DNA of 22,567 nucleotides from a virus: positions 1 to 22,567 of IMG/VR virus record IMGVR_UViG_3300024261_000165. One strand, written 5' to 3'. Position numbers and translations under genes: made by a program. The notes beneath the pieces are model-generated. The model saw nothing but the letters and a program-made list of their open reading frames with translations, had not been told where the DNA came from and ran no database searches. Shown here in pieces: positions 724-22,567 of the stretch (position 1 is its first letter; every line of letters starts with the position of its first letter).

Positions 724-3312
724 TTAAACTCCTGTTGCTTGCCATGTAAAAAATCCATCTGCAAAAGATCCATCAACTGCATCTAATAGATATACTGTAA
801 AAGATGTTGGGTTACTAGTATCTTCAAAATCATAAATTGCAGTATTTTGATTACCATTATTATTTCCCCCAGATAAGAACTGAGGTGTTACTGATATACT
901 ATTTATATCTTGAAATGTTTTATTGAAAGATATAACCTTGCCATTAGATCTAGCCCCCCAAGAAATGCTAGAGCTTGCCATAGACTGATCTCTAATAGTT
1001 CTGAGCTTTAAATCTATACTTTGTTCTAGAATTTCTCTAAAACTATTGTTAGTTGAGGTATATACAATTTTTACCTTTAAATACCTTATATTAGAGACTA
1101 GAAACGAGGTATCTCCTTCATTAACTGCGACCCATCCTGTAGTACTACTTAAACTCTCAGTATTATAAAGAGTATCTCCTAGAGATTCACTTAAGTAATA
1201 AAGGTATACACTTGCACCTACTGAACCACTATAATCCTTTATGTTCTCTATCAAAGATGTGGTAGATTGAGGCACCTCGGTCCCTAGATCCCACTTCTGC
1301 CAGTAGGTTGCGTTAGTGGTGGGGGTTAAATAGTACTCATGAGTACTATTAATTAAATCCTGTATAGTATTAGAACTTAAAATACCGTGTCTAGTGCCGT
1401 GCTCTAACCAAGTTTCTGTGGGTATAGGAACTAAAGCTGTTGTATCTTCTAGGGCTAATATATTATTCCAGGAAGCTTGGGACTCTTCTACCCAATTTCC
1501 ACCCGCATTTTCACAACTAACTTCGGTTATATAGCTTCCAGAACCTATATCACAATAAGCAGAATTTAGCGAGGAGCTTGTAAACTTAGAAGTTACTTGG
1601 TCTAATAACTCGAAGTCGCGAGGTTCATTAACATAAGTGCTTTTAGATAGGGGTTCTGAATAATTCCCTGCTGAGTCATATGCAGTTACAAAGTACTTAT
1701 ATTCTCCTGCAGACGTCTCGAAAAATGTATAAGTATTGGAAGTACCTACGTTTGCTATGTACTGTGCAGTACTTAAATAGTCTGTAGTATCACAGGTTCC
1801 AGAACTGGGGCATCTATAAATTGCATAACTAGATATTGGAAGAGATGAGCTAGTTGGCTGCTGCCAACTTAAAATAACATTATTATCAATTACTTGAGAG
1901 ACTAAATTCTCTACAGGATGGGGGTTATCTATTTGTATACTACTATACTGAGCAGGTATTGAAATATTTCCAGCTGTGTCTACACATATGAACCAAAACG
2001 ACCTAGTAGCACTTGAGTGGTCTGTTTGAGTAGGGCCCCAGTCTGCCGGAGTGGAGTACTTAGTAGTTTCTCCTGCTACAGACTTCTGTTCTACTAAATT
2101 GTAAATGCCTCCATTTAATACCGTTATACTACTAGTACTAGAATCCCAAATAGGCTCTTCCCAATAAATCTTTATAGACTTAAGAGGTAAAGAGGATATG
2201 CTGGGCAGTTCCCAGAATATATCTACCACTCCATTAGAGGAGGGAGTACTAAAGTCACTATGTGTGAAGTAATTCAGGCTATTAGGTCTATCTATAGTAA
2301 CATCTATATATACAGCAGCATTTGAAGCATCTAAGCCATACGCCCCAGATGCATCCTCCGGTATTACCCAGTACCTTCGTTTAGGTTTAGAAGACCCCGA
2401 ATTTAATTCTATAGAACCATTATTATTAAGTATTGAAGGCCCCCAAGTTACCTTCTCGGTATAGGAATTACCTTTAGTATTTAAGGTATTATTATTATCA
2501 AAAGAAGGGGGAATATTATCCCAATCTTTGTAGCTTACTTTATAATGCTCTATACCAGCCCTTACGCTACCTGAAGAACCTACCCCCGAGTACTCAGGTT
2601 CGTTCTCAATATTCCAAGAGACTATGCTATTTTCACCTACTAAAAGGGATGTGACTGTAGGAGCTAGTGGAGCTAATGCCTCTATAGAGATACTTAGTGT
2701 ATTTGAAGCAGTATTTCCCATAGTATCTACTGCTTCGATTGTAAAAGTTCTTATACTTTGGGAAGAACCTGTCTCCCCCACCCCCCAAGTTACTGGAAAA
2801 GTAATAGTACTATCTACCAGATATTTACCTTCTGTAGTACCCTGACCTACATTATACGAAATACCCTCAACCCCTTGCTGATAAGATACTTTGTAACCTA
2901 ATATATTAAATTGTTTGGTCTCGGGGATACTCCAGCTTAAAGTTAGCAAACCCTGATTACATTTATAGGATACTTTCTGACTATCAGACCAGTTAGCACT
3001 TACTACTTCTATAGTTTTATACCCTGGTAACTCTGAATACATATTTGAGTCATCTAGAGCCTTTACTAAGAAATAATGAGTGCCTGAGACTAAGGACTCA
3101 GGTATATAATTGAAACTAGTTGCTCGACCCCTGAATACCTCGGTTCCTGTAATATCCCATTGAGAACTCCAGTCTCCTCCAGCATTTATGCAGCTTACAG
3201 GGTCTGTATGTTGACTTATAGAGCAAGTTCCGTTAGTACTAGTATGTTGAACTATATACTCCTTTACATCTAAATCAGGTACCTCCTGCCAACTTATATT
3301 TAATGAACTCAT
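724..3312 (-). CDS. Fibronectin type III-rich tail tip protein, apparent detached C-terminal half of gpJ
   Basis: 862 residues, starting 11 bases after the gpJ stop with a strong AAGGAG ribosome site that overlaps that stop. About five FN3-like beta domains can be traced at roughly 1-100, 105-215, 216-355, 356-465 and 466-560, each with a core Trp and a tyrosine-corner-like end such as FTIEAVDTMGN, FWFICVDTAGN or YFVTAYDSAGN. Three carry an extra loop with a (T/D)WG(P/V) motif. Residues about 690-862 end in a beta region (ISFNKTFQDINSISVTPQF ... GFFTWQATGV) like the C-terminus of many gpJ-type host-specificity proteins. Two Cys/AGG/Trp inserts lie at residues 30-48 and 587-607. The first residues (SLNISWQEVPDLDVKEY) read like the second half of an FN3 domain whose first strand is the end of the upstream gpJ. 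Inferred role: distal extension of the tail tip, near the receptor-binding apparatus. Confidence 0.75.
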   Translation of the reverse strand: MSSLNISWQEVPDLDVKEYIVQHTSTNGTCSISQHTDPVSCINAGGDWSSQWDITGTEVFRGRATSFNYIPESLVSGTHYFLVKALDDSNMYSELPGYKTIEVVSANWSDSQKVSYKCNQGLLTLSWSIPETKQFNILGYKVSYQQGVEGISYNVGQGTTEGKYLVDSTITFPVTWGVGETGSSQSIRTFTIEAVDTMGNTASNTLSISIEALAPLAPTVTSLLVGENSIVSWNIENEPEYSGVGSSGSVRAGIEHYKVSYKDWDNIPPSFDNNNTLNTKGNSYTEKVTWGPSILNNNGSIELNSGSSKPKRRYWVIPEDASGAYGLDASNAAVYIDVTIDRPNSLNYFTHSDFSTPSSNGVVDIFWELPSISSLPLKSIKIYWEEPIWDSSTSSITVLNGGIYNLVEQKSVAGETTKYSTPADWGPTQTDHSSATRSFWFICVDTAGNISIPAQYSSIQIDNPHPVENLVSQVIDNNVILSWQQPTSSSLPISSYAIYRCPSSGTCDTTDYLSTAQYIANVGTSNTYTFFETSAGEYKYFVTAYDSAGNYSEPLSKSTYVNEPRDFELLDQVTSKFTSSSLNSAYCDIGSGSYITEVSCENAGGNWVEESQASWNNILALEDTTALVPIPTETWLEHGTRHGILSSNTIQDLINSTHEYYLTPTTNATYWQKWDLGTEVPQSTTSLIENIKDYSGSVGASVYLYYLSESLGDTLYNTESLSSTTGWVAVNEGDTSFLVSNIRYLKVKIVYTSTNNSFREILEQSIDLKLRTIRDQSMASSSISWGARSNGKVISFNKTFQDINSISVTPQFLSGGNNNGNQNTAIYDFEDTSNPTSFTVYLLDAVDGSFADGFFTWQATGV
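1492..1554 (-). repeat. Cys/AGG/Trp microdomain copy in the FN3 protein, C-terminal part
   Basis: Encodes residues 587-607: a first Cys (CDIG), a Ser/Tyr-rich spacer, then CENAGGNW. It fits the pattern Cys, variable spacer, Cys-x-x-Ala-Gly-Gly-x-Trp shared with the connector, gpL and gpJ. It falls in a non-FN3 linker after the fifth FN3 domain. Confidence 0.8.
3169..3225 (-). repeat. Cys/AGG/Trp microdomain copy in the FN3 protein, N-terminal part
   Basis: Encodes residues 30-48: CSISQHTDPVS followed by CINAGGDW. It interrupts the first FN3-like domain between YIVQHTS and the segment leading to FNYIPESL. Confidence 0.8.
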
Positions 3313-3323
3313 TATACAACTCC

Positions 3324-5930
3324 TTAAGGTATTACTTGTATCTCTATGTTATTAGAAATAACGTTAGTAGGTGGGGCAGTTTTTCCTAGTAAAGAAGTAC
3401 TAAAAGAAGTATAGGAAGACTGTTTTCCTGTAATAGATATAGTCTTTACCATAACTTCATAGTCTCCTGCAGGAGCATCCTCAATAACTATCCCAGTACT
3501 GGAAGTTTCTCCTAAATTTACCCAGTTTCCTTGGTCCTTTCTATACTTAACAAAATAACTTTGTGTATAACTGTAGATAACGCCCACATCACAGGAACTC
3601 CCAGATACTCCGGAAGGGCACCAAGATATAAAACCTCTATTTCTAATGGAATTATTAGAAGTAAGGTACAGTTCTTCGGCTATATCAATATTTACAGGGG
3701 CGGGTACTAAACTACTAGGACTCGGTAGTATACTAACATTTTTTGTAGAGAAACTAGTGCCTCGTTCTATATAATTATACTTAGCACTGTGATGTTTTAA
3801 GGCTGATATTTCTACTACATTTTTAGCACTCTCCCGAATAGATAATACTCTAAAGGTTTGTGCAACCACTTCCGAATTACTAGTTGTATCCTCTAGAATC
3901 CAAGAGTATTCTCCAGAAGGGTTACTACTAAAGCTTTGATCTAACTCTATAATATTAGTGCTTAAAGAGTTACTAAGAGTGCTAAGAGGTTTTGTCTCTA
4001 CCCATATATAAGGCTTCCAATCGTTGTCCGAGGTAGTTAAACATAGCTCTTTAGGATCACTTAACCAAGTCCCTCCTGCAGCAGTGCAAGTGCTATAGTC
4101 CCCATATGGTTCCGTAATATTATTACCATTAGTATCAATACACTTTGGAGTGTTTATTACTTTAATTCCAGAACTATTAATACAAGCTTCTTCTGTATTA
4201 ATTAAGGATAGATTATAGGTATGGTTTACAACTAAATCTATATAACTATCTATACCCACCGACGTAGTAGTATTATCATAATTATTTGAAACTCTGCCAC
4301 CATATCTTACTCCAGACTTTGTTGAGTCTGCAACTTTTATAATATCCCCAGGACGTATACTTAACCCCTCTAAACCTGTCTTAAATGATACAATTTCCGT
4401 CTCATACTTTTCAGTATACAAAAGCCACTGACCAACCCTGCGAGCTTGTCCTTTAGACGTACAGCCTACTGCATTTATACTTTTTACTACTAACTGATTA
4501 TTAAAGGAAGCTATAGCCTCAGCATCTTCAACATACTCTACATTTTTATTATAGAAATCTTCTGGGTTATTCCAGGTTACATGGGCTACATTGTGTCTTT
4601 TCTTCTTTGAAACCCCTTCGTAGTTAAATTGACCATCAATTACGTTGGCTTTATTAAACAACATTACAGGATCTTTCTGTACATCTTGAACGGAGGTAAT
4701 TTGACCCTGTTGCCAGTATAACATACCTCTAAAGGTTGAGGCTATATCGTTTACTAATTTATATGCCTCAATGGATCCTTGAATATACATATTACAAGTA
4801 AATCGGGCTTCTTTACCTCCTTCGCCCCATCCGTCCTCTACCCCTATAAAATCACCACTTGAATCTACCGCATCACAATACTTTGCTACTTCGTATAAGG
4901 ACCACTTATCTATATTATGTGTCTCTAACCATCTCCCTAACCCATATCTTGTGTTAGTACATATATCATATAGAATCCATGCAGGATTGCAAGTCCACTG
5001 TTTTTGACTTTTAAAAGTACCATCCCAATAGCCCGAATACAGGTTACTACCAGGAACAGTTCCCTCCCAGGTTCCTCCTGCATCAATACAAGTACCTCTT
5101 CTTCTATACTCCGGAATACTACAGTGTCCCTGGTCATAAGGGGTATAGTTGCTAGGTACCTTTACTTTTATACCTTTTACCTCAAAACCTCTGGTAGGTA
5201 CATTATCGAACTGTTTTGAGTCTAGTTTCATAGCAACTATGGCACTATGCGGGTACCTAAATTTATTATCTATTATTCTTGTATAAGACCTCCAGTATAG
5301 GGAGTCACTAATATTAGCTGTCCCTGCAACTGCTGTAGTTCTTTTTACTCCCACATATATAGTAGGGCTGCCCTTTATATTCTCCGGTACATCTATTCTA
5401 TAAGACCTTTCGTACTTTTTGTTTGTCTTACCAGAAAAGGATTTAGTCCCTCCTACTTTAGTGCTAGAACTACTTGTTGGGATACTACTATTACTAATAT
5501 GTATCTCAAACTCAATTTTATAACCATTTAAGTCCCCACTATCCATTTCTTGTTTAGATAAACTATCTACAGATATAGTTATTCTAACTGCATCTAAGTT
5601 ACTAGCACTCGTAATACTTTTGTTATACATAGTATTCGCATCTAAATCACCAAAACTAGTAGTAACCTCCGAGGCAGAACCTTCAAATCCTTTTATATAA
5701 GACTGATCTAGTACACCTGTTCTATACTCTACAGATACTCCTTCGAAGTTAAAAGATTCATCTGCAGCTTGTAGAGGTACTTTGTCTATATATATAGATT
5801 TATTACCGTTTACTAAACCTTGAATTTCTCCCTCAGATACTAGATCTATTATTTTTGCTTTTGAAGCCGAGAATAGTGTATTATCTGCTTCTACTGCTGC
5901 TGAACCACCGCCGCCGCCGCCGCAACACAT
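3324..5930 (-). CDS. J: gpJ-like tail tip attachment / central hub protein
   Basis: 868 residues; lambda J is about 1130. ATG at 5930 overlaps the previous stop (TAATG) and follows GGGGAAG. The N-terminus is a Cys-Cys-poly-Gly stretch, then the family signature IIDLVSEGEIQGLVNG (about residues 27-42) with IYIDKVPLQ. The second signature VKVPSNYTPY ... YWDGTFK ... NPAWILYDICTNTRYGLG (about 257-335) marks the phage tail-tip J domain. A Cys/AGG/Trp insert at residues 270-288 lies exactly in the loop between PSNYTPY and YSGYWDG, and a longer Cys-rich insert lies at 583-630. An FN3-like domain occupies about 750-850. The protein stops at GKTAPPTNVISNNIEIQVIP, where a full-length gpJ would continue into more FN3 repeats; those are in the next gene. 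Role in lambda: closes the tail tip and contacts the receptor. Here it may only be the hub, with recognition passed to the next two genes. Confidence 0.93.
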   Translation of the reverse strand: MCCGGGGGGSAAVEADNTLFSASKAKIIDLVSEGEIQGLVNGNKSIYIDKVPLQAADESFNFEGVSVEYRTGVLDQSYIKGFEGSASEVTTSFGDLDANTMYNKSITSASNLDAVRITISVDSLSKQEMDSGDLNGYKIEFEIHISNSSIPTSSSSTKVGGTKSFSGKTNKKYERSYRIDVPENIKGSPTIYVGVKRTTAVAGTANISDSLYWRSYTRIIDNKFRYPHSAIVAMKLDSKQFDNVPTRGFEVKGIKVKVPSNYTPYDQGHCSIPEYRRRGTCIDAGGTWEGTVPGSNLYSGYWDGTFKSQKQWTCNPAWILYDICTNTRYGLGRWLETHNIDKWSLYEVAKYCDAVDSSGDFIGVEDGWGEGGKEARFTCNMYIQGSIEAYKLVNDIASTFRGMLYWQQGQITSVQDVQKDPVMLFNKANVIDGQFNYEGVSKKKRHNVAHVTWNNPEDFYNKNVEYVEDAEAIASFNNQLVVKSINAVGCTSKGQARRVGQWLLYTEKYETEIVSFKTGLEGLSIRPGDIIKVADSTKSGVRYGGRVSNNYDNTTTSVGIDSYIDLVVNHTYNLSLINTEEACINSSGIKVINTPKCIDTNGNNITEPYGDYSTCTAAGGTWLSDPKELCLTTSDNDWKPYIWVETKPLSTLSNSLSTNIIELDQSFSSNPSGEYSWILEDTTSNSEVVAQTFRVLSIRESAKNVVEISALKHHSAKYNYIERGTSFSTKNVSILPSPSSLVPAPVNIDIAEELYLTSNNSIRNRGFISWCPSGVSGSSCDVGVIYSYTQSYFVKYRKDQGNWVNLGETSSTGIVIEDAPAGDYEVMVKTISITGKQSSYTSFSTSLLGKTAPPTNVISNNIEIQVIP
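4041..4184 (-). repeat. Compound Cys-rich insert in gpJ (second site)
   Basis: Encodes residues 583-630 with four cysteines: CINSSG, then CIDTNGNN, then CTAAGGTW, and a closing Cys in DPKELC. The Trp codon is at 4065-4067. It interrupts the beta region between a YIDLVVNHTYNLSL segment and DNDWKPYIWVE. It reads as two or more fused copies of the microdomain, one of which has lost its AGGxW end. Confidence 0.75.
5067..5123 (-). repeat. Cys/AGG/Trp microdomain copy in gpJ (first site)
   Basis: Encodes residues 270-288: CSIPEYRRRGT then CIDAGGTW. It sits in a loop of the J domain that in other gpJ proteins joins PxNYDP directly to YxGxWDG. Confidence 0.85.
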
Positions 5931-6415
5931 TATACTTCCCCTTTTTTTATCTCTTCAGAACTATGTTCTTTAGTGTATTTATTAAAATCTTCTATACCCG
6001 TTATAGTATTATATAATACTTGAACACCTAAAATGGCCCATTCAAAACCTCCTATTAAATAAACTGCTCTAGCTAATACTGGAGCGTAGGATAGCCTTAA
6101 GGAGTAAGAAGTTAACAATACTTTTTGTCTTTCTAACTCGTTAGCGGCTAACCAATCATATACCATCTGTTCCAGAAAAGGTTGTAAATCGTCTTTATGC
6201 TTAGTATAAAAAGGATTGTTAGGCAACTTAATTAGTAGTAATGAAAACGCGTTTGATATATCCATACCTGTGGGAGTATACTTATCTTTGTCGATTAAAT
6301 CATCCCAAGTACCTACTACCTCTAATATTAACTTACAGAACTCTATAGCAGGTTCATCTCCTTTTAACCACTCTTGTAATAGTTCACTAATTTCATCTCG
6401 TACTCTCATATACAT
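5930..6415 (-). CDS. Small helical protein of unknown function between I and J, with WDDLIDKDK motif
   Basis: 161 residues from ATG at 6415. The frame is open to an earlier ATG at 6466, but that start lies inside gpI by 35 bases and has no visible ribosome site, whereas 6415 follows GGGAG at a 6-base spacing. The product is predicted all-helical. It has a WDDLIDKDK motif at residues 37-45 (exact DDxxD), a NAFSLLLIKLPNNPFY segment, a DWLAANELERQ helix and a hydrophobic stretch LARAVYLIGGFEWAILGVQVL near the C-terminus. I recall similar unannotated proteins with WDD and LPxNPFY motifs in tail modules of other siphophages but know no function for them. Its place between I and J suggests a tip-assembly factor or chaperone; that is inference from position only. 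Its stop overlaps the gpJ start by one base, so the two are probably translationally coupled. Confidence 0.75.
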   Translation of the reverse strand: MYMRVRDEISELLQEWLKGDEPAIEFCKLILEVVGTWDDLIDKDKYTPTGMDISNAFSLLLIKLPNNPFYTKHKDDLQPFLEQMVYDWLAANELERQKVLLTSYSLRLSYAPVLARAVYLIGGFEWAILGVQVLYNTITGIEDFNKYTKEHSSEEIKKGEV

Positions 6416-6431
6416 AGTATGCTCCCAAGCA

Positions 6432-7055
6432 TTAAGGGTTATAATCTTCTGGTATGATACTGGCACTAACGACAGCGCTACCTACTATTAACTGACCGTA
6501 ACATAGAGGTATTGGAACCCCTTGTTTAGTGGTATTTAGAGGCCCTCTAAATGCATATTCGGTTTGTTCCTCTTTTGGAGGTTCTGGAGCAGGTGCTAGA
6601 AGCTCTGCTACTCCGGATAATACAAGGGCGGCCCCCAACTTCATACCTGTGAGGGCCATACTAGAAAACACCTTACCTCCTAGTACTACAGAGCCTTCAG
6701 CTAACGTCATCCCTTCTGTAAGGGGTACTCCAAACTGAAAAGCAAAATATAGTAAAAACGCCCCTATTATAATCTTCATTAAACCCCCTTTTTTGGAGCC
6801 AATAACTACAGGGATAATTTGTATATCGGCAACTCCTGAAGGAACTAGAGTGTCTCTTCCATCTAGTAAATAGCTTTTACCTATTTTAATATGGAAGCCC
6901 ATCCCGTTACTCTCGGCATCCTCTAAGTATTTTCTAAAGTCTTTTTTATTTATTGTTAAGGCTCTTATAGCTTCCGCAGGGGTATTTACGTCTAAGTTCC
7001 ATTCCTTACCAAAACGCTCTCCTAATTCTCCATATAATTTAACTTTTTTTAACAT
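6432..7055 (-). CDS. I: gpI-like tail assembly protein
   Basis: 207 residues, close to lambda gpI (about 220). The N-terminal 75 residues have the ubiquitin-like pattern of the family: VKLYGELGERFGKEWNLDV, then PAEAIRAL, then LVPSGVADIQIIPVVIGSKKGG. A long hydrophobic Gly/Ala-rich centre follows (about 92-152). The C-terminus, with EYAFRGPLNTTKQGVPIPLCYG and VGSAVVSASI, is the conserved gpI ending. The ATG overlaps the end of gpK by 7 bases and has no ribosome site of its own, so coupling to gpK is likely. In lambda, gpI is needed for tip assembly but its exact action is unclear. The hydrophobic centre might be mistaken for membrane segments but is typical of this family. Confidence 0.92.
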   Translation of the reverse strand: MLKKVKLYGELGERFGKEWNLDVNTPAEAIRALTINKKDFRKYLEDAESNGMGFHIKIGKSYLLDGRDTLVPSGVADIQIIPVVIGSKKGGLMKIIIGAFLLYFAFQFGVPLTEGMTLAEGSVVLGGKVFSSMALTGMKLGAALVLSGVAELLAPAPEPPKEEQTEYAFRGPLNTTKQGVPIPLCYGQLIVGSAVVSASIIPEDYNP

Positions 7056-7738
7056 AATGATTTGTGCCTCAAATGATGTGTAGTAAAATTACTCCAGTAA
7101 CCAGAATAATTCTCTCGGTTGGATAGTCTTCCATGTATGTGATGAAGGATATTATTATCCCCTATATAAATAGCTGCATGATTAGGAACGGGGGATAATA
7201 ATTTAATTAAAAAAACATCTCCTTCAATAGGTTGGGTATCTTCAAGACTTACAAAACCTTGCTTAGAGTAATTATCTAAATACCTATTTTCTCCTCTTAA
7301 CCACCACTCATCTTCTCCAGCAGTACACTCAAAAAATAATCTGTAATTTTTAGCATAATAGTCCTTAATTAAGGAACAACAGTCTATTACTCCATACTCA
7401 AAGGTTCTACCTAATAAATCTTTCTCAGGGTTAATACTCTTTAAATCCCTGCCTGGAAGACTCAATATATACCAAACTTTATTTGTACTATTACATAAAG
7501 AGATATCAGCCTCGGAGGGATTACTTAGGCTATTGGGGTGGGAATGACAGATCCCTTCTATCACACCTTTATCCTCTGCAAGGGCGTAGTCCTCAGGATC
7601 TAGTATGAAATTATCCTCCGGATTATCAGATATATTACGACAAGGTATATACCTTTTATTAACTATTAAACCACAAACCTCTTTTGGGTACCCTTCTTCC
7701 GCATGACTTGTAAAAGCTGTTAATATCTCTATATCCAT
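7049..7738 (-). CDS. K: gpK-like tail tip peptidase: JAMM and NlpC/P60 domains
   Basis: 229 residues, two domains as in lambda gpK. The N-terminal half is a JAMM/MPN metalloprotease: Glu20 in PKEVCGLI, then HSHPNSLSNPSEAD at 65-78, giving the zinc ligands His65, His67 and Asp78 with Ser75 in the full HxHP-x6-SxxD pattern. The C-terminal half is an NlpC/P60 cysteine peptidase: Cys120 in DCCSLIKDYY, His187 in NHAAIYIG, and His199 or His200 as the likely third residue. All catalytic positions look intact, so both activities are plausible: a processing protease during tip assembly and a peptidoglycan peptidase during DNA entry. The ATG overlaps the gpL stop (TAATG) after AAGG. A Cys at 121 next to the catalytic Cys is a small peculiarity. 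Confidence 0.95.
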   Translation of the reverse strand: MDIEILTAFTSHAEEGYPKEVCGLIVNKRYIPCRNISDNPEDNFILDPEDYALAEDKGVIEGICHSHPNSLSNPSEADISLCNSTNKVWYILSLPGRDLKSINPEKDLLGRTFEYGVIDCCSLIKDYYAKNYRLFFECTAGEDEWWLRGENRYLDNYSKQGFVSLEDTQPIEGDVFLIKLLSPVPNHAAIYIGDNNILHHIHGRLSNRENYSGYWSNFTTHHLRHKSLC

Positions 7739-8526
7739 TATTCCATACCTTTACCAGCACCGGGAAAACCCCCAAAAGGGTTCGAAGTGCTAGAGTTATC
7801 GGGGAATCTTAATTCGCAGGAACCAAACGTTTTACCACAGACATCCTCGGATACGTTAGTTACTGAGATGTTATTTATATCCCAGTAACTACTACCTGTG
7901 TAGTCACAGGCTCCCTCCTTATATACCCATAAACATGTATCGGATATCACATGCCTTGCCGGCAGCTTTACCCCCTGTACGTCATAAGCGGCAGTTAACT
8001 CAAATTCTACATGAGTACCTGTCTCTAAGGACTTCCTATCTATATACCATATCTCATCTGCGAAATGTGCTGTAGGGTCTGCTTCAGGGTTTTCATACCA
8101 AGTACCTCCAGCAGTACTACAAGTATTAGAGGTGTACACCCCGGAACTAGAGCCTTCTATTACACAATAAGAATCTAGAAACCTTTCAAAAGTCTTTTTT
8201 CTGGTTACTTTAGCCCCTACTAAATCCTCGTATGTATTAATTAAGGATGTAAGTATGGAGGTGATATTACTTACCAACAACTTAGGTCTGGGAATCTGAG
8301 CATTGCCAGACATCTCAAATCCTGAAGCCTCAACTGGGAAAGGTGAATAATTGTACCCTTGCCAAACTACCTCTTCCATACTATCATTAACTCCTGAGTG
8401 CCATCTAAATACTTCAGTATCAGTAGGCACTGAAGCAACACCCGTCCTTAAGTCTAGTTCAAACAGTGTAACTACTGCTCCTGATTCTAATATATTTGAG
8501 TCTTGTACTAAAGCGTTTGTGGACAT
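7738..8526 (-). CDS. L: gpL-like minor tail protein with four-cysteine Fe-S site
   Basis: 262 residues; lambda gpL is 232, and most of the difference is an insert. The N-terminal part matches gpL (TLFELDL, VVWQGYNYSPFPVEASGFE, RPKLLVSN). The C-terminal part keeps the cluster-binding pattern: Cys198 in CLWVYKEGAC, Cys207, Cys230 in DVCGKTFGSCELRF and Cys237, ending in NPFGGFPG. In lambda gpL the equivalent four cysteines bind a [4Fe-4S] cluster; that is family knowledge. A Cys/AGG/Trp insert at 121-143 breaks the loop between KKTFERFLD and DPTAHFADEIWYIDRK, adding two cysteines that are not cluster ligands. The start has a good AAGGAGAAG ribosome site in the 16-base gap after gpM. Likely role: contact layer between the tail tube end and the gpJ hub. 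Confidence 0.95.
   Translation of the reverse strand: MSTNALVQDSNILESGAVVTLFELDLRTGVASVPTDTEVFRWHSGVNDSMEEVVWQGYNYSPFPVEASGFEMSGNAQIPRPKLLVSNITSILTSLINTYEDLVGAKVTRKKTFERFLDSYCVIEGSSSGVYTSNTCSTAGGTWYENPEADPTAHFADEIWYIDRKSLETGTHVEFELTAAYDVQGVKLPARHVISDTCLWVYKEGACDYTGSSYWDINNISVTNVSEDVCGKTFGSCELRFPDNSSTSNPFGGFPGAGKGME
8098..8166 (-). repeat. Cys/AGG/Trp microdomain copy in gpL
   Basis: Encodes residues 121-143: CVIEGSSSGVYTSNT then CSTAGGTW. The flanking gpL sequence is intact on both sides, so this is a clean in-frame insertion into a loop. Confidence 0.87.
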
Positions 8527-9099: not shown

Positions 9100-12000
9100 T
9101 TAATAACTACTTAACAGTCCTCCAGGTCTTTGTTGTTCTACTATTTCAGTTTGTACTGCTTGAGATATTAGGTATCCTAGCTCCTCTCCGGTACTATCAT
9201 CAAGTCCTCCGGAATTTTCAGTCTGAGTAGATGCATTACCTTTGTCATCTACATTAACATTAATAACAATATTATTAATATTGCCCCCACCTGTGTTACC
9301 TATTACAGGAATAGATCTACCGTCTGGTAAAGGAACTACAGCTTCATTATATCTACCCTCACCTACCAGACCTAAAGTAGGTTTGGTTACGGTACCTCCA
9401 TTGGCGAAAGCTCTGAAACCCCCTTCTAGAACGCCACCATTCGCGGCGAATAACATTGTACTACCTATACTACTAGTAGCATTTGCTGCTGTGATAATAC
9501 CGGCAGCAGCTGTTGCTGCTGCTACCATACTACTAGCAAAGAAATTAGCGGCTGTTGTGATAATACCGGCAGAGGTTGTTGCTGCACCAACTTCTAAAGC
9601 TGTGTTTGTGGTTGTAGCTACTGTTTTGATACCTACTACAGTTGTTGCGGTTGCTATATCTGCGGCATTCTTTGCTTGGTCTACTATTAAACCCTCTGTA
9701 GCCTCCCCAAACATACTGGACATTAAAGAGTTAGCCGCTGATTGCGCTAGAGAATCTATTAAAGTATTAGCCATAGATAGAGTGAAATTAGCTAAGATTT
9801 GTTTAAAATCAAAAGTACCCGTTTTAAGTGCCATACCTATGCCTTGTGCTAACGAAGCAGCTCCAACATTAAATACTCCTTCAGCAGACATCCCCCAACT
9901 ATTAAGAGTACTACCTAATGTAGAATTATTTATTTTATAAACTTCTGCTAAGTTATCTTTAGAAACAACATCAGCTTTCTGACCTTCCTCTAACCCTGTA
10001 ACTACCGCTCCCCCTCTTTCACGGAAAGTGTTATCAAACTTATTATACCATATATCTAGCTCGTTTACGTGTTTGTTATTTAAGGTGTCTAATGATTTAA
10101 GATACGCAGCCGAAAGGTTACCTTTTTCTTCAAGCCACCCCTTCGCCGCCTCACTACCTTCCGGAGAGTTCTCTATTATGTCTCTAATATTTCTAAAAGT
10201 ATTATAGAGGTTACCTACCTGCTCTTCTATAACACCCTGTATATTCTCGTCATGAACGTATATAGAGCCTTTCTTAAGTCCCGCCTCTGCTAATTTATCT
10301 TGGCTAGATGCATCTGGAAGTAGTCCTCCCATATCTTTTGTAGTTATACCCATACTCGCATTAAACTTATCTTCATCGCAGGTCCAAATCTTATACTTCA
10401 CGTACTCATAAGCTTGAATTATAGTACTATATATATCTTCTGCTAAATTATTAGGATCGTAGCTAGAAGTATCAGTAGATATTCTATCCTCTATACTACT
10501 CTTAGCAGTTTGTGCTAATTCAAGCATTTTTAAACCTACAGCATCTCCTATATCGGAAGCACTATTTATAGTACTAGTAGCTACTTCAGAAATTAAATTC
10601 GTAGCTTTAGGTATCCACACCTCTGTAGCGCTTACACCCTCACTTATCATTTCTTTCCAAGAGGTATCTTCCTCCTTAACTACTTTAGTTTCTTCTAGTA
10701 ACTGGGAACTTGCTCTTGATATTCTAACTAGAGTTTCGGCTTTACTATCATCACCTTCGTTGAGTTTACCTAACTCCTCAAGTATTTTCTCTTGAAGAGA
10801 GGAATCATCCCGTTTTTTAGGTTTGTCAGAACTAAACCAATCAAATCCAAAGAATTCAGGTAAACCCGTGTTAGGGTTTATAGTGCCTGAACCTCCTAAA
10901 GATTTTAGTAATGCTTGTTCGTCTTTATTAATATGAGCTAACTCAGAATCTCCGTTACGTCCTAAGGAAGCTAAGCCCCCATTAGAGAAGCCTCCTGCGA
11001 AGTTTAATAGACTATCTAAGATACCCTGCTCCTTAGGCTTCTCCTTGAACATAGTAGGATTAAAGTTGTATAGTATCTTTTTCGTCTCTCCATTTAATAT
11101 ACTACCGTGTTTATCAAATAGTTCCTGGGCATCTGTTCTGTTACCTAAAGTCTTAAGCAGATGAGCCATATAAGCCTTCTGTCCCAACTTGTCTGTACTT
11201 AATAAACTAAAGTCCTGGTTCGCCTCTTGGGCCTGACTAATATAGGCTACTTGCTTCGCCCCTATATAGTCTATAGTACTTTTTGGACCAAATTTAGTAC
11301 CTGCAAAGTTTCTTAGATTTTTAAAGATTCCAGCATTAGCTAGAGCTTCATCCAAGTCTCTGGAGTGCTTAATTATAGAATCTAGTTGATAAAATATTTT
11401 AGCAGTACTTGTATTAGCTAGTTCTGCCCCCGTATCATAATCCCTATGAGAGCCGCCATGTAACTTAAGTTTTGGAGTTGGGTTTTTATTAAAGGTTCTA
11501 TTCTTTCCGGCTAACCACATCCAACCAGCTCCTGATGCGGCTAATCCATTTAAATGTGTATCCATAGCATGGGCTGCAATATCATTTATTATATTTGTGG
11601 CGTATATAATATTCCCACCCGTCGAATCAATATCTACCCTGTCTGTAGAGAAATTATCTAATCCATAATCCCAGGCCTCTTTCATATCCTTATTAATACT
11701 TCCATGTACTTTAAAGGTACTACTACCGTCTAAGTACTTAGCATACTTTGCAGGTATAGGAGTAGGTGTTTGAGCAGGTGTTTGAGCCCCTAAAGAACCC
11801 CCCTTTGCAAACCCAGGGAGCTTATCTTCATTAATAGCTTCAATTAGCGCTCGGTGCTTCCCAGTAGACGCTGCATTGATTACGTACTCACCATTAGAGA
11901 GCATTGCGGGGATTTTATCCTCTTTTGGACCACCAGGTCCTGTGATAGACCCGCCAGTTGCCCTATTAACTCCAGCCCAAGGGTTATAGGTAGGAGTATC

Positions 12001-15000
12001 TGGAGCTCCTGGAGTACGTGGATTATAATCCTGCCAAAAAGTTTGTAAAGCGCCAATTAAATCATCTAGTTTACCTACTAAAGTATCTGCTATAGTGGTT
12101 TTTAAATCTGTAATACTATTGGCTATAGCTAAAGAGTCTAGGTCTTTTAAAGAAGTGCCTAGTGTCTTCATGGCTTGTACACTTGCGGATAACTCTACAG
12201 TGTTATCAAGAACTGCATTTAAAGACTTCTCTGCTTGTGCTTTTGCAAGTTCTGCGCTGATTCGGGCTTCTTGTTCAGGGGTCTTACCTCCCTCATTAGC
12301 AAATCCTGCCATAATTTGGCTCTGTCCTAGTACCATTAGGTCTTGACCCTGCTGGATTAGTGAATCTCCTAAAGATCCCCACATAGTGTCTACTAAATCC
12401 GCAGCCCAGATAGTGCCGTGCTCTTCCCAGTTTTCCATAGCTTTTTGGTTAACAGTACGGAAAGAATCTACAGAAGCCTGTACCATAAATTCAGCAAAGG
12501 AAGACATGCTATCCTCCATTTCCTTAATAGTATAAAACCACTCATCTCTTACAGTTTTTGCCCATTCATTACCATTTTTCATGCGGCGTTTATGTGCAGC
12601 TTCCTGGTCCTCGTAGAAACTTTGCTGTAAGTCTCTTAGCTCTTCTTGCTTCTGATACTCTAAACCCATTAACTCTAGAGTTTTAATTCTATACTCCAAG
12701 TCATCTGAATTATACTGACCTCTCTCTTTTAGGAGTTTTGATCTATCTCTCTCACGACTCTGTTCTGCTGCTAAAAACTTAAGAGACCTGGCTTGTACCA
12801 AGTTTTCTTCTTTGAATAACTGGGACTTAGTGTCTCTTTGAGACTCTACTAAAGATAGGTATGCTTCAGTTGTACTTATCTGAGCATCGTACATTCTCTG
12901 TCTATTTTCCAGTACTTTATTTATACGATTCTCTTCCTGAAGGATCGCAACATCTAAGTTATAAATAGTACGCAGATGTACTGCCTCTTGTTGCCTTTCT
13001 TCAGCAGTTTTTTCAGATAAAGCTACACGTACCTTCTCAGCCTCATACACCTCGCGTAGGCGAGCAATTTGCTGTAGTTCTAATGTAGTATCTGCTTTAA
13101 TTCTATTGCCAGAAGCATTGGCTTCTAGCTCTATTAAAGACTCCGTTCTACTTCGAAGTTCTTCTTGCTTATTAAGTGCTGCATCTACATATTCTATCTT
13201 ACGAGTATTAATGGCCTGACGTCGTGCATCCTTAACTATTTCAGACTGGATATCTAAATACTTTTCTTGTAGGGTATTCTTGGCTGTTTGTAGCTCTACT
13301 TGGCGGTTATACTCTTCAGTAATATAACTAGTATCCCCTTTCTCTAGACTTAGATTAGTTTGATACTTAAGTTGTAAATTGTTTAGCTTCTCCTGGTGAG
13401 TCGCCTGCTGTACTAAGAGATTATTAGCTAGAACTTGCTCTATATTAATACTGGTTGCTAAACTCTCTATCTGAGTTCTTAAACCTAAAAGAGCTCGGTT
13501 TCCTTCTAACTCTTGATTTTTTAATTTTGTAAGAATCTTTAGGTTTTCTACATTTACATTCTGGTAACTTTCCCGTATCTTAAATATTTTTGTTTCTAAG
13601 CCCAGTATAGCAGCTTGTGTACTTCTTATCTTTTTAGCATCTTGCTTATCCTCATCTACAGAAGTTAAAGCTGCTAAAATAGCACGCCTATTTTCCAGCA
13701 TTTGGTTGTGGTGCTCTAATTCCTTAGATACAGCAGTATTATGAGATGCTGCTGCTCCATTCAACAAACCAATTTCTTTCTTATTCCTTGCTAATCTTTT
13801 AGCTAATCTGGTTTGATTCGCTAAACTTAGTTCTATAGCTCTGGCATCTAATAGAGCTTTTAGATTGTAACCTTTCTGCTTTGCTAATAACTTATTAACC
13901 TCTGTTAGTGGTCCTTCTTGCCACTCTTCTTTATCAAAAGTTCTAGCTTTAGTACGTGGGTCCACTAAAGGGGCATTAAGCTTCTTACCCATCTCTATTA
14001 AGGTTTTGTATTGTTGCTCAGCATTTTTAAAAGCAATGGTACGTCCCAACCAGTCATCTTCAGGTTTCACCTTTATAGCTTCTAAACTATTATTGAAGTT
14101 CTCCAGAGCTTCAATCATACCGTCAAATATAGAGACATTTTTAAAACCTTCTTCAAACGTTTTATACTCTTTATTAAACGCTTTTGAGGAATCTACAGCA
14201 CCTCGGGTATTACCCGCAAGTAGCTTCTGGCTCTTCGAAACCTTCATTAAACCTGCAGAAGCTATTTCTGTCACTTTTCTAAGCTCACGCAGAGTAGCAG
14301 TTTCAGATTCAGTGATCTGTTTAACTCGCTCTTCTGTTAACCCCAAACTCTCCCACTCTAATCCACTAGTATGTAGTGATTCGCCTAAACTAACAAAGGC
14401 TTCTTGAGAGTCTTCTAACACGGAGCTCCCCATATTACCCCACATTTCATTTATACTCTTATCTAATTCAGAACTATTATCAATAAAGATACCTTGTTTA
14501 GCTGTAAACTCCTCAAAAGAGGCAGCTAAATTAGAGGTTCTATTAGCAGTATGTTCTGCTGCAAGTGCTACGGAGTTTAGAGACCCGTCTGAGCTCTGTA
14601 AAGTTTGCATGTACGCCCGGTATTTTTGATTCGTATCTGTAAAAGTATTTTGTAGGGTTTTAAATGCCTCATCTACCTCTGAAGCGTTTTGGGTAGATAG
14701 CCCTGTAATTTTTAGAAAAACGTCCCCCACTATCTGAAGAGTACCCGCAACGGATATTACCTTCAAAGCTGTTGTTACTAAGGTGTTTAGTGCTGTGGTT
14801 AATGTACGAACTGCTAAAACTACAGAAGTAGATATTGTAGTGGCCCATCTCTTCCATATAGTTATTCCATGCATCTGCGTAGTGTGTAAAATATCCATCT
14901 GTTTATTTATATTTTTAACACCTCTAATAAAGGACTTGAATACTCCTGACCCTTTACTTATTTCACTATAGTAATCTTTTAATACAGAACCACTAGCTGA

Positions 15001-16722
15001 CTTAGCAACTGCGCTGCTATATAGTTTTCTAGCCTTCCCTTTACTTATGTACCCAGCCTTTCTAGACGCTATTACGGACTGCTCTACTTCATCCGTATTA
15101 ATAGACATTTGCTCTGCTTTACTCTTCCACTCCTTAGATAGGTTTCCTATACTAGGCACTACTTTATTACCTAAATAAGATATTAAAAGACCAAAAGAAG
15201 TCATCATAGCAATGGGGGATTTAGCCACTATATCTAATGCTGGAGATAGTATAGAATTAAAAGCTCCTCCCACATTTAAAGCCATATCTGTTACTTTAGA
15301 GGATAACACATCCCATTGGTTCGGGTCCATAGTATCATTTAAATGACCAAACTTATCTAAAGCCTGACCTGTAGCAAACTCCATAATAGCCATCTGCTTC
15401 TCAAATGTTGTCATAGAAGACACAGATTTATCATTAGACTCTGCCCAGGCTTCCTGCGCATCTTTAAGTCTTAGAATAATACCTAATTCATCCAGTAACT
15501 CTGGCTCAGCCTTTACTACACCACGTGTCATTCTATCTAAAGCGTCGGGCACATTACGTCCCAAAGCTAAAGCCGCTACTTTGGCGGCTTTACCCATTTT
15601 AATTATATCGTCGGAACCAAAACCTGCAGCAGAAGCTAAAGTAGCAGTATCTGCAGCTTCTTTATAAGTTACGGCCATATCTGTAGCCCTCTGGAGTTGT
15701 TTAGCTACAATACTTAAAGATAGTCCTGTAGTTTTTCCATACTCTGCCATACCTTTTTTCATCTGAACTAAGTTTGCTGCTTCTCTTAAGCCTCTAAAAG
15801 CTGCTCCAAGAGCAAATACTTTAGCGGCATAATCTGCGTACATAGCAACAAAGCCTCCCATACCCGAAGCCATTTTCCCAAAATCGCGACCAGCGGCTCC
15901 GGAAACGCCTGCTAAACCTTTCTCCCCTTTATTATACTTGCTGGTATTTCTAGAATTTCTATCCTGTTTAATCCCGGAGAGTGCGGCCTGACCTGCACTC
16001 CTTTTCTCCTCTACAGTTCTTCCAGAAGCTACCGCTGCCCTATATCTATTATGCTCTTTTTCGTTAAGACTTTCACCCCTAACTACTCTAAGTTCTCCAG
16101 CATGAATCTCCCCTCTAGAGGCTCTGGCTCTCTTCACTTCTTGCATAGTAGCTAGTCTAGCTTTAGAACCTTTTTTCATAGTACGACCAATAGTAGTAAT
16201 CAGTCTCTCCAAATTCTTATTTAGAAGATTCATTTGAGCATTAGATCGTACAGCTATATCTTTCTGACTTTTAAAAACTCTAGCCATATCTGTAAACTGA
16301 CTTTCAAACTTAGATTCGTGTGCACCGATGGCTTTAGTAGTACCTGCTTGCAACACACTACCTATTCCCGGAGACCTTGCAGAATCCTTATAGCTTCGGG
16401 AAGATTCTCTTGAGTCTCTACCTGTAAGTCTAGCATTTAAGCGTATTCCCTTTGCCTCAATCAGCTTAATCTGTTGCATAATTGAGTTTTTAAAATACTT
16501 CTTATCTATTACTGCTTTAATTTTAAGGGACTTAGATCCTCCAGCACCTAGACTAGCGAAAGCTCGTGATACACTTCTTTGGAATGAGGGTCTATCAACG
16601 GATAGCTTAACCTTACGGTTCTTCTTACCCGCTGCCTTATTTAATTCCTTTAAATCAGCTACAGTCTCTTTTAAACCTTTTGAGGTAACCTTAACTAATA
16701 CTGTTTTTTTATTATCAGCCAC
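9100..16722 (-). CDS. Very large tail tape measure protein, 2540 residues
   Basis: The start is GTG at 16722 after GGAG, one base past the chaperone stop. The N-terminal ~250 residues are basic and Ser-rich. About 280-330 is Gly/Ala-rich and hydrophobic, and about 365-430 carries a classic tape-measure core (GFGSDDIIKMGKAAKVAALA ... DALDRMTRGVVKAE). A long coiled-coil section runs about 940-1415, rich in Glu, Gln, Arg and Leu. About 1588-1613 is the lambda-H-type element GPGGPKEDKIPAMLSNGEYV. An unrecognised globular region follows at about 1660-1880, then further helical segments. The end holds an Ala/Thr-rich hydrophobic stretch (about 2360-2430) and a second H-type ending, LGLVGEGRYNEAVVPLPDG (from about 2449). 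Lambda H has 853 residues and sets a 135-nm tail. At the same rise per residue this protein could span roughly 380 nm, though the globular parts argue for less. It sits in the tube lumen and probably enters the cell envelope during DNA injection. Confidence 0.95.
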   Translation of the reverse strand: MADNKKTVLVKVTSKGLKETVADLKELNKAAGKKNRKVKLSVDRPSFQRSVSRAFASLGAGGSKSLKIKAVIDKKYFKNSIMQQIKLIEAKGIRLNARLTGRDSRESSRSYKDSARSPGIGSVLQAGTTKAIGAHESKFESQFTDMARVFKSQKDIAVRSNAQMNLLNKNLERLITTIGRTMKKGSKARLATMQEVKRARASRGEIHAGELRVVRGESLNEKEHNRYRAAVASGRTVEEKRSAGQAALSGIKQDRNSRNTSKYNKGEKGLAGVSGAAGRDFGKMASGMGGFVAMYADYAAKVFALGAAFRGLREAANLVQMKKGMAEYGKTTGLSLSIVAKQLQRATDMAVTYKEAADTATLASAAGFGSDDIIKMGKAAKVAALALGRNVPDALDRMTRGVVKAEPELLDELGIILRLKDAQEAWAESNDKSVSSMTTFEKQMAIMEFATGQALDKFGHLNDTMDPNQWDVLSSKVTDMALNVGGAFNSILSPALDIVAKSPIAMMTSFGLLISYLGNKVVPSIGNLSKEWKSKAEQMSINTDEVEQSVIASRKAGYISKGKARKLYSSAVAKSASGSVLKDYYSEISKGSGVFKSFIRGVKNINKQMDILHTTQMHGITIWKRWATTISTSVVLAVRTLTTALNTLVTTALKVISVAGTLQIVGDVFLKITGLSTQNASEVDEAFKTLQNTFTDTNQKYRAYMQTLQSSDGSLNSVALAAEHTANRTSNLAASFEEFTAKQGIFIDNSSELDKSINEMWGNMGSSVLEDSQEAFVSLGESLHTSGLEWESLGLTEERVKQITESETATLRELRKVTEIASAGLMKVSKSQKLLAGNTRGAVDSSKAFNKEYKTFEEGFKNVSIFDGMIEALENFNNSLEAIKVKPEDDWLGRTIAFKNAEQQYKTLIEMGKKLNAPLVDPRTKARTFDKEEWQEGPLTEVNKLLAKQKGYNLKALLDARAIELSLANQTRLAKRLARNKKEIGLLNGAAASHNTAVSKELEHHNQMLENRRAILAALTSVDEDKQDAKKIRSTQAAILGLETKIFKIRESYQNVNVENLKILTKLKNQELEGNRALLGLRTQIESLATSINIEQVLANNLLVQQATHQEKLNNLQLKYQTNLSLEKGDTSYITEEYNRQVELQTAKNTLQEKYLDIQSEIVKDARRQAINTRKIEYVDAALNKQEELRSRTESLIELEANASGNRIKADTTLELQQIARLREVYEAEKVRVALSEKTAEERQQEAVHLRTIYNLDVAILQEENRINKVLENRQRMYDAQISTTEAYLSLVESQRDTKSQLFKEENLVQARSLKFLAAEQSRERDRSKLLKERGQYNSDDLEYRIKTLELMGLEYQKQEELRDLQQSFYEDQEAAHKRRMKNGNEWAKTVRDEWFYTIKEMEDSMSSFAEFMVQASVDSFRTVNQKAMENWEEHGTIWAADLVDTMWGSLGDSLIQQGQDLMVLGQSQIMAGFANEGGKTPEQEARISAELAKAQAEKSLNAVLDNTVELSASVQAMKTLGTSLKDLDSLAIANSITDLKTTIADTLVGKLDDLIGALQTFWQDYNPRTPGAPDTPTYNPWAGVNRATGGSITGPGGPKEDKIPAMLSNGEYVINAASTGKHRALIEAINEDKLPGFAKGGSLGAQTPAQTPTPIPAKYAKYLDGSSTFKVHGSINKDMKEAWDYGLDNFSTDRVDIDSTGGNIIYATNIINDIAAHAMDTHLNGLAASGAGWMWLAGKNRTFNKNPTPKLKLHGGSHRDYDTGAELANTSTAKIFYQLDSIIKHSRDLDEALANAGIFKNLRNFAGTKFGPKSTIDYIGAKQVAYISQAQEANQDFSLLSTDKLGQKAYMAHLLKTLGNRTDAQELFDKHGSILNGETKKILYNFNPTMFKEKPKEQGILDSLLNFAGGFSNGGLASLGRNGDSELAHINKDEQALLKSLGGSGTINPNTGLPEFFGFDWFSSDKPKKRDDSSLQEKILEELGKLNEGDDSKAETLVRISRASSQLLEETKVVKEEDTSWKEMISEGVSATEVWIPKATNLISEVATSTINSASDIGDAVGLKMLELAQTAKSSIEDRISTDTSSYDPNNLAEDIYSTIIQAYEYVKYKIWTCDEDKFNASMGITTKDMGGLLPDASSQDKLAEAGLKKGSIYVHDENIQGVIEEQVGNLYNTFRNIRDIIENSPEGSEAAKGWLEEKGNLSAAYLKSLDTLNNKHVNELDIWYNKFDNTFRERGGAVVTGLEEGQKADVVSKDNLAEVYKINNSTLGSTLNSWGMSAEGVFNVGAASLAQGIGMALKTGTFDFKQILANFTLSMANTLIDSLAQSAANSLMSSMFGEATEGLIVDQAKNAADIATATTVVGIKTVATTTNTALEVGAATTSAGIITTAANFFASSMVAAATAAAGIITAANATSSIGSTMLFAANGGVLEGGFRAFANGGTVTKPTLGLVGEGRYNEAVVPLPDGRSIPVIGNTGGGNINNIVINVNVDDKGNASTQTENSGGLDDSTGEELGYLISQAVQTEIVEQQRPGGLLSSY
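9490..9572. repeat. Direct repeat in the hydrophobic C-terminal part of the tape measure gene
   Basis: The 17-mer tgtgataataccggcag occurs at 9490-9506 and again at 9556-9572, 66 bases apart, with imperfect similarity around it. It encodes two AGIIT-containing Ala/Thr-rich segments 22 residues apart, so the hydrophobic segment has probably grown by internal duplication. Confidence 0.8.
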
Positions 16723-22224: not shown

Positions 22225-22567
22225 TGTATAATTATATTATAACCTAAAGACTTGATATGTTCTAGTCTTTCTATTGTTTCGTTGTGTAACTGTCCAAACG
22301 TTTTACTACAGCTTTTATTATAGTCGTCTGGATCGTAAACTTCAGGATTACCGTGCCAGTAATCACCTAAGAACTCGTATACTGTATTAGTCTCAGGATC
22401 GTATCCATCGACTTTATAGTTCGCTATCGGATACTGCCGCTCTGTAATACCTAAAGAATCTAACCACTCTTTTTCTTTTAATGATTCTTTATGTAGTACG
22501 GGTTTAATATCTAGTTCCTTGAATCTATGAGATAATTTACCCTTCTGATAACCTAATTCTTTACTTA
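22200..22567 (-). CDS. Vsr-like WHG-motif endonuclease, C-terminal 121 residues (runs off the right edge)
   Basis: The frame is open from the right edge to TAG at 22200-22202 and is recognised by sequence. The first visible residues (KELGYQKGKLSHRFKELDI) look like the end of a helix-turn-helix. Then come KEKEWLDSLGITERQYPI, the nuclease core YKVDGYDPETNTVYEF followed by LGDYWHGNPEVY, then TIERLEHIKSLGYNIIIQW ending in EKEWLI. The D...E...WHG core with the closing IxxWExxW is typical of Vsr-like nucleases (EDxHD/PD-(D/E)xK group) found in phages as free-standing or intron homing enzymes. The gene overlaps the connector gene by 25 bases (13 if the later connector start is used). Specificity and the N-terminus cannot be seen. 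A plain repair or restriction nuclease is possible, but the location in a structural module favours a homing role. Confidence 0.75.
   Translation of the reverse strand, partial: SKELGYQKGKLSHRFKELDIKPVLHKESLKEKEWLDSLGITERQYPIANYKVDGYDPETNTVYEFLGDYWHGNPEVYDPDDYNKSCSKTFGQLHNETIERLEHIKSLGYNIIIQWEKEWLI

What the first reader, a model, noticed from the sequence alone, without database searches (positions are those of the whole stretch)
3270..3420. gpJ appears split into two genes inside an FN3 domain
gpJ ends with GKTAPPTNVISNNIEIQVIP, the normal opening of an FN3 domain. The next gene opens with SLNISWQEVPDLDVKEY, the normal continuation. The junction holds a stop, an AAGGAG site and a new ATG, 11 bases after the stop and in a different frame. 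The C-terminal gpJ-like ending is found only in the second protein. This looks like gene fission, with the halves perhaps completing one domain between chains.
Basis: partly seen in the sequence, partly recalled or inferred. Interest (0 to 1): 0.5.

Follow-up and report, generated by a model that had tools for sequence, protein, structure and literature searches.

The report
Phage tail-tip protein split mid-domain
In this phage the tail-tip protein that normally holds the receptor-binding fibre in one chain is made by two genes, cut inside a small building-block domain, and most of its closest relatives are cut inside the neighbouring domain, which suggests that the two chains clip together by sharing a strand.

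Summary
Confirmed: the gpJ-like gene (J1, 5930..3324, 868 aa) stops inside a fibronectin-III (FN3) domain. After TAA, an AAGGAG overlapping that stop and 11 bases, a second 862-aa gene (J2, 3312..724) starts in another frame and carries the rest. Aligned with relatives whose corresponding FN3 is in one chain, the halves abut with no residue missing; the break lies between strands A and B of the domain equivalent to lambda gpJ FNIII-2. Four other IMG/VR contigs have the identical junction, so it is not an assembly slip.

It is not a one-off. In the related group 49 of 130 distinct gpJ 3' ends (31 of the 130 run off their contigs) stop one domain earlier, between strands F and G of FNIII-1, mostly with a TAATG overlap; J2 then begins with the missing G strand. 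45 are single chains. None of 70 closed bacterial-genome relatives is split. An A/B-split locus is 99.5% identical to a single-chain one up to the FN3-FN3 linker, so the split can travel with a swapped fibre module.

Best reading: hub and fibre subunits that share an FN3 domain by strand completion in trans, at a module-exchange point. Trans completion is inferred. T5 pb3/pb4 is a known hub/fibre split, but between whole domains. New variant of a known kind.

The parts
3324..5930 (-). J1: gpJ-like baseplate hub gene, 868 aa, ending inside an FN3 domain
   Evidence: phrog_31 E 1e-214; PF24801 residues 100-221; PF13550 residues 388-542; PDB lambda J 8iyk_J E 5e-84, F2-pyocin tail fibre 25vf_A E 1e-115
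3387..3713 (-). J1 FNIII-1, complete in this phage (about residues 740-848, read from alignment)
   Evidence: alignment with L072, whose FNIII-1 is modelled with pLDDT mostly 80-92 with dips at loops; this is the domain cut between strands F and G in the commonest relatives
3327..3386 (-). J1 C-terminal 20 residues GKTAPPTNVISNNIEIQVIP: linker plus A strand of FNIII-2
   Evidence: aligned with contiguous FN3 in L048, L127, L068, L072
3324..3326 (-). J1 stop codon TAA
3320..3325 (-). AAGGAG Shine-Dalgarno-like site for J2, overlapping the J1 stop; 7 nt spacer to the ATG
   Evidence: identical in 4 further contigs
724..3312 (-). J2: fibre gene, 862 aa; FN3-like repeats and a gpJ-type C-terminus
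   Evidence: AF2 model with mean pLDDT 60; Foldseek matches are FN3 strings
3004..3312 (-). J2 residues 1-103: FNIII-2 strands B, C, C', E, F, G without strand A
   Evidence: AF2 strands 4-7, 16-24, 57-62, 66-69, 77-87, 97-103 (strand names assigned by me)

Best explanation
Shown: the lambda-gpJ equivalent of this phage is encoded as two chains, a conserved hub (J1) and a fibre (J2), with the gene boundary between strands A and B of FNIII-2; relatives are cut between strands F and G of FNIII-1. Inferred: both chains are made from one mRNA by stop, Shine-Dalgarno site and restart, co-fold at the tail tip, and the C-terminal strand of J1 completes the first FN3 of J2 (in the F/G type, the N-terminal peptide of J2 supplies strand G to the hub). 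The hub-fibre joint would then be a non-covalent, strand-shared domain instead of a peptide bond. Because the boundary lies near the FN3-FN3 linker where gpJ modules recombine, the arrangement keeps the hub constant while fibres are exchanged.
For: Halves abut exactly against FN3 domains that sit in one chain in relatives. Predicted strands of single-chain L072 place both kinds of boundary in loops next to one terminal strand; the J2 model shows six strands without strand A. Junction identical in the window plus 4 contigs with intact ORFs. 49 of 130 distinct 3' ends are F/G split, at least 45 of those 49 with TAATG, and 46 of 49 carry AGGAG inside the codons of the J1 C-terminus. Split architecture clusters on the hub tree: 2 changes for F/G against 20.2 in shuffles. 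L066 (A/B split) and L072 (single chain) are 99.5% identical over 3,556 bp and part at the linker. In 19 non-independent pairs with J1 3' DNA at least 93% and J2 5' DNA at most 75% identical, the change point is always +8 to +47 nt inside J2. 0 of 70 closed bacterial-genome relatives stop before J1 position 950.
Against: No complex was modelled or measured. Model confidence is middling (mean pLDDT 60 in both; 72, 70, 67 in the first three blocks of 10 residues of J2). FNIII-2 could fold without strand A. The A/B type is rare: 2 distinct sequences, and L066 ends 103 nt after the point where it leaves L072, so its J2 is seen for 13 residues only. In some contrasts (such as L023/L034) the swap lies near the J2 start and exchanges most of the presumed G strand too, so hub and strand are not strictly co-inherited.
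Confidence: 0.62

Rival explanations
1. Two real proteins, but no shared domain: the J1 tail is a flexible end, the first FN3 of J2 is a stable six-strand variant, and hub and fibre meet through loops as whole domains do in T5 pb3/pb4.
For: T5 hub and fibre touch through loops of complete FNIII domains (PMC10038345, passages read). Nothing here measures contact.
Against: The missing strand is present, in order and with no lost residue, on the partner gene at both kinds of boundary; six strands without A in J2.
Confidence: 0.25
2. A fused gpJ is also made at some level by readthrough or programmed frameshift across the junction.
For: Halves are collinear; in L010 and L066 stop and next ATG are in the same frame.
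Against: The frame relation differs between loci (window +2, F/G type -1, L010 and L066 0); most have an SD-like site and an ATG; no slippery heptamer was seen by eye at the junctions.
Confidence: 0.07
3. Sequencing or assembly error, or a decaying gpJ gene.
For: Metagenomic contigs; a few relatives have probable frame errors in J1 (L051, L074).
Against: Five contigs share the 17-nt junction; both ORFs stay open over 860 codons; the inserted bases are a complete stop-SD-ATG unit rather than one indel; a different junction of the same type occurs in L066.
Confidence: 0.04

Closest known systems
Phage lambda gpJ (tip attachment protein J; PHROG 31)
   Same: Hub domains, FNIII-A, FNIII-1 and the gene order M-L-K-I-J; J1 plus J2 align end to end with single-chain gpJ relatives.
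   Different: Lambda gpJ is one chain from hub to receptor-binding domain (PMC11101478, passages read); here it is two, cut inside FNIII-2.
Phage T5 pb3 (hub) and pb4 (central fibre)
   Same: Hub and central fibre are separate proteins that meet in an FNIII string (PMC10038345, passages); the C-terminal part of lambda gpJ is called the counterpart of pb4 and pb5 in PMC10721106 (passages).
   Different: In T5 the boundary falls between complete domains, two on pb3 and three on pb4; here it falls inside one domain.
Pelagibacter phage HTVC026P gp48/gp49 against HTVC202P gp46
   Same: A cultured phage with a split gpJ-like tail protein joined by TAATG, next to a single-chain relative.
   Different: Split after the second FN3, in a linker; hub only distantly related.
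Donor-strand complementation of pilins (recalled, no call)
   Same: A strand from one chain completes a beta-sandwich of another.
   Different: There it joins like subunits of a fibre with the help of chaperones; here it would join hub and fibre of a tail tip, and it is only inferred.

Membership tests
Lambda gpJ-type tail tip protein | Hub domains with Phage-tail_3 and gpJ-specific FNIII-A | tested here: met
   J1: PF13550 E 3e-27, PF24801 E 7e-24, phrog_31 E 1e-214
Lambda gpJ-type tail tip protein | Last of the tail-tip genes after M, L, K, I | tested here: met
   phrog_14, phrog_18, phrog_30, phrog_32 upstream of J1, with one extra gene (phrog_21390) between I and J
Lambda gpJ-type tail tip protein | Single chain from hub to C-terminal fibre | tested here: not met
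   two ORFs in different frames
T5 pb3/pb4-type hub and fibre | Hub and fibre on separate chains | tested here: met
T5 pb3/pb4-type hub and fibre | Chain boundary between complete FNIII domains | tested here: not met
   boundary between strands A and B of FNIII-2
T5 pb3/pb4-type hub and fibre | Separate terminal receptor-binding protein (pb5) at the fibre end | not tested
   the window ends shortly after J2; receptor unknown
Strand complementation in trans | Partner strand built into the sandwich in the assembled particle | not testable with these tools
   no complex prediction offered; inferred from collinearity

The most novel reading that the evidence does not exclude
A lineage of phages has replaced the peptide bond between tail-tip hub and receptor-binding fibre by a strand-shared FN3 domain, used as a snap-on joint; the break has settled at different strands of two successive FN3 domains and can move with the fibre module as a self-split cassette, so that recombination exchanges fibres without touching the hub.
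Probability: 0.4. Interest if true: 0.72.

Novelty: new variant of a known kind. Interest (0 to 1): 0.5.

Why it matters
gpJ-type proteins carry both the tube-closing hub and the receptor-binding fibre, and in lambda and T5 the FNIII strings between them rearrange when the receptor is bound. A natural, recurrent break inside just those domains would show that the link need not be covalent, gives a two-part system for testing how the signal passes from fibre to hub, and offers a mechanism for the exchange of host-recognition modules in environmental phages. Annotation of such phages will otherwise miss the fibre: J2 alone hits no PHROG.

Tried and rejected
Single-indel or frameshift reading: rejected, because the halves abut without loss and the inserted bases form a stop, SD-like site and ATG. 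RNA structure at the junction: nothing special (z -1.27). Slippery sequence: none seen by eye at the junctions. Bacterial genomes or prophages with the split: none in 80 loci, of which 10 were open. More A/B-type junctions: a scan with a back-translated L066 tail found only L066; one with the window tail found the four known contigs. Seven paper searches for earlier reports of such a split or of shared FN3 strands gave nothing on point; some searches looked for T5 pb3/pb4, HTVC026P and gpJ FNIII papers. The library is open-access only, so this is weak evidence that the split is unreported. The first J1/J2 alignment for the L072 fold (A4) misaligned long J2 rows and was replaced by A5. Rows set aside from counts: of 130 distinct 3' ends, 31 were open (one of them looked fused) and 3 'other' (L051, L074 with probable frame errors, L144 read in a wrong frame). 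The 195 viral loci scored include several cuts of the same contigs, hence the count by distinct last 600 nt.

Full report
WHAT IS THERE. The window is a 22,567-base IMG/VR virus record. On its minus strand lies a lambda-like tail block: a 2,540-aa ORF in the tape-measure position (9100-16722), M-, L-, K- and I-like genes (phrog_14, 18, 30, 32), one extra gene (phrog_21390), then J1 (5930..3324, 868 aa) and J2 (3312..724, 862 aa). J1 is the gpJ hub: phrog_31 E 1e-214 but only to profile position 972 of 1565, FNIII-A_GpJ at residues 100-221, Phage-tail_3 at 388-542, and PDB sequence matches to lambda J and to the F2-pyocin tail fibre. J2 has no PHROG and no Pfam family above its cut-off. Between them: TAA (3326-3324), AAGGAG (3325-3320, sharing two bases with the stop), 11 nt, ATG (3312), another frame.

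WHERE THE CUT FALLS. The window J1 tail GKTAPPTNVISNNIEIQVIP and the J2 head (M)SSLNISWQEVPDLDVKEY align with nothing missing to relatives in which the same FN3 lies in one chain: L048 J2 (GKTAKPANVVFNTPVVRPIMGGIFLSWDAIPDVDFKEY), L127, L123, L068, L072, L153; L116-L122 fit as well, apart from a long insert of their own. The C-terminal part of J2 matches the C-terminus of ~2,000-residue single-chain gpJ proteins (L118, L120). An AF2 model of a single-chain relative (L072, 25-row alignment, mean pLDDT 60, but mostly 80-92 over FNIII-1 and about 70-85 over FNIII-2) gives strands for both domains: the window boundary lies between strand A (382-386) and strand B (389-393) of FNIII-2. The AF2 model of window J2 alone (8 rows, mean pLDDT 60) shows six strands for that domain and no strand A. 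Strand names are my assignment.

NOT A ONE-OFF. Among 195 viral loci with a J1 match, counted by distinct last 600 nt (130), 49 stop at another place: after '...DAPAGTLEFRVKTRRIF' or close variants, the end of strand F of FNIII-1, with J2 starting 'MIYSPYASVEAEIYGK...' or 'MANIFSRFATKSATILGK...', the stretch that aligns with strand G. 45 are single chains, 2 are of the window's A/B type, 31 are open and 3 unclear. At least 45 of the 49 have the overlap TAATG, and 46 of the 49 carry AGGAG within the codons of the J1 C-terminus: the SD-like site of J2 sits in the J1 coding sequence. L010 departs: stop, 12 nt with its own AGGAG, ATG in the same frame, and its J1 tail reads 'KTIRIF'. The eight loci with a J2 at 42% identity to the window's (L088-L095), and L048 at 44%, are all F/G type, with J2 starting 34 or more residues earlier. 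In 80 relatives from bacterial genomes, 70 closed, none stops before J1 position 950, so the splits are typical of this environmental phage group and not of gpJ at large.

HISTORY. On a hub tree of 60 rows (J1 columns before FNIII-1, quick method) the F/G rows need 2 changes against 20.2 in shuffles; the window sits at the base of or inside that group (support 91 and 94, the latter drawn open; long branch 0.81), and L066 (A/B) sits with single-chain L072 inside an otherwise single-chain clade (support 100). L066 and L072 are 99.5% identical over 3,556 bp up to the linker 'LLGK'; beyond it L072 continues as one chain, and L066 carries an A/B-type end, TAAGGATAAAATATG, and a new start. So a boundary of the window's type exists on two hub backgrounds, and in L066 it came in with the exchanged stretch. 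Whether the two A/B modules are homologous cannot be told: only 13 residues of L066 J2 are seen. In F/G loci, 19 pairs (not independent) with J1 3' DNA at least 93% identical and J2 5' DNA at most 75% identical have their change point +8 to +47 nt into J2, nine of them at +44 to +47, the GK linker. Gene boundary and module-exchange zone thus coincide to within 16 codons.

HOW IT PROBABLY WORKS. Shown: two intact, collinear ORFs cut inside an FN3 domain, conserved in five contigs, and a sister arrangement in a large group. Inferred: restart at J2, co-assembly, completion of the domain in trans, and exchange of fibres at the joint. In lambda and T5 the FNIII strings between hub and fibre come apart and reposition on receptor binding (PMC11101478 and PMC10038345, passages read), so a shared-strand joint would lie in the path of the infection signal. 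I give this 0.62, a T5-like contact between an incomplete but stable FN3 and the hub 0.25, an additional fused product 0.07, artefact 0.04.

KNOWN OR NEW. A hub/fibre split as such is known: T5 pb3/pb4, cut between complete FNIII domains. A cultured pelagiphage, HTVC026P, has a split gpJ-like protein (gp48/gp49) where HTVC202P has one chain, again cut in a linker. I found no report of cuts inside an FN3 domain in the open-access library, which is weak evidence of absence. Hence: new variant of a known kind, interest 0.5.

LIMITS. Metagenomic contigs only, host unknown; middling model confidence; no complex; A/B type known from two sequences, one at a contig end; pairs in the change-point analysis overlap; the hub tree is a quick one.

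Noticed in passing
window 3324-5930, 724-3312, 7738-8526 and 21196-22224 (minus strand): A recurring peptide of about 20 residues, C...(S/T)...C..AGG.W-like, sits in several virion genes: J1 270 and 597, J2 30 and 587, the L-like protein 121, a weaker form at 226 of the 21196-22224 product. The J2 copy at residue 30 is an insertion absent from L048. Three copies compared at DNA level were not clearly alike. A strict form occurs 59 times in 2.01 Mb of the viral loci (31 loci, duplicates included) and 0 times in 1.03 Mb of the bacterial loci.
   Followed up: partly
window 5930-6466 (minus): An extra gene (phrog_21390, unknown function) sits between the I-like gene and J1, overlapping the I-like gene by 35 bases; the listed ORF starts with GTG.
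   Followed up: no
L024 4396-6541; L059 7398-9633: J2 itself is broken into two ORFs in these contigs (242 and 490 aa; 276 and 354 aa), either frame errors or further splits.
   Followed up: no
L198 (HTVC026P) 3219-6175 against L197 (HTVC202P) 3231-6110: Cultured pelagiphages with a split and a single-chain version of the same gpJ-like protein; the split follows the second FN3.
   Followed up: partly
L198 2818-3231; L204 2194-2601; L205 1801-2187: Genes just upstream of the gpJ-like gene in pelagiphages are annotated as toxin-activating lysine-acyltransferase or RTX acyltransferase; their place in the tail block suggests a tail-assembly protein with a doubtful name.
   Followed up: no
window 22200-22565 (minus, cut by the window end): The partial ORF at the window end reads like a small endonuclease (YDPETNTVYEFLGDYWHGNPEVYDP); judged by eye only.
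   Followed up: no
L051, L074: J1 frame breaks in otherwise normal F/G-type contigs, probably sequencing errors.
   Followed up: no
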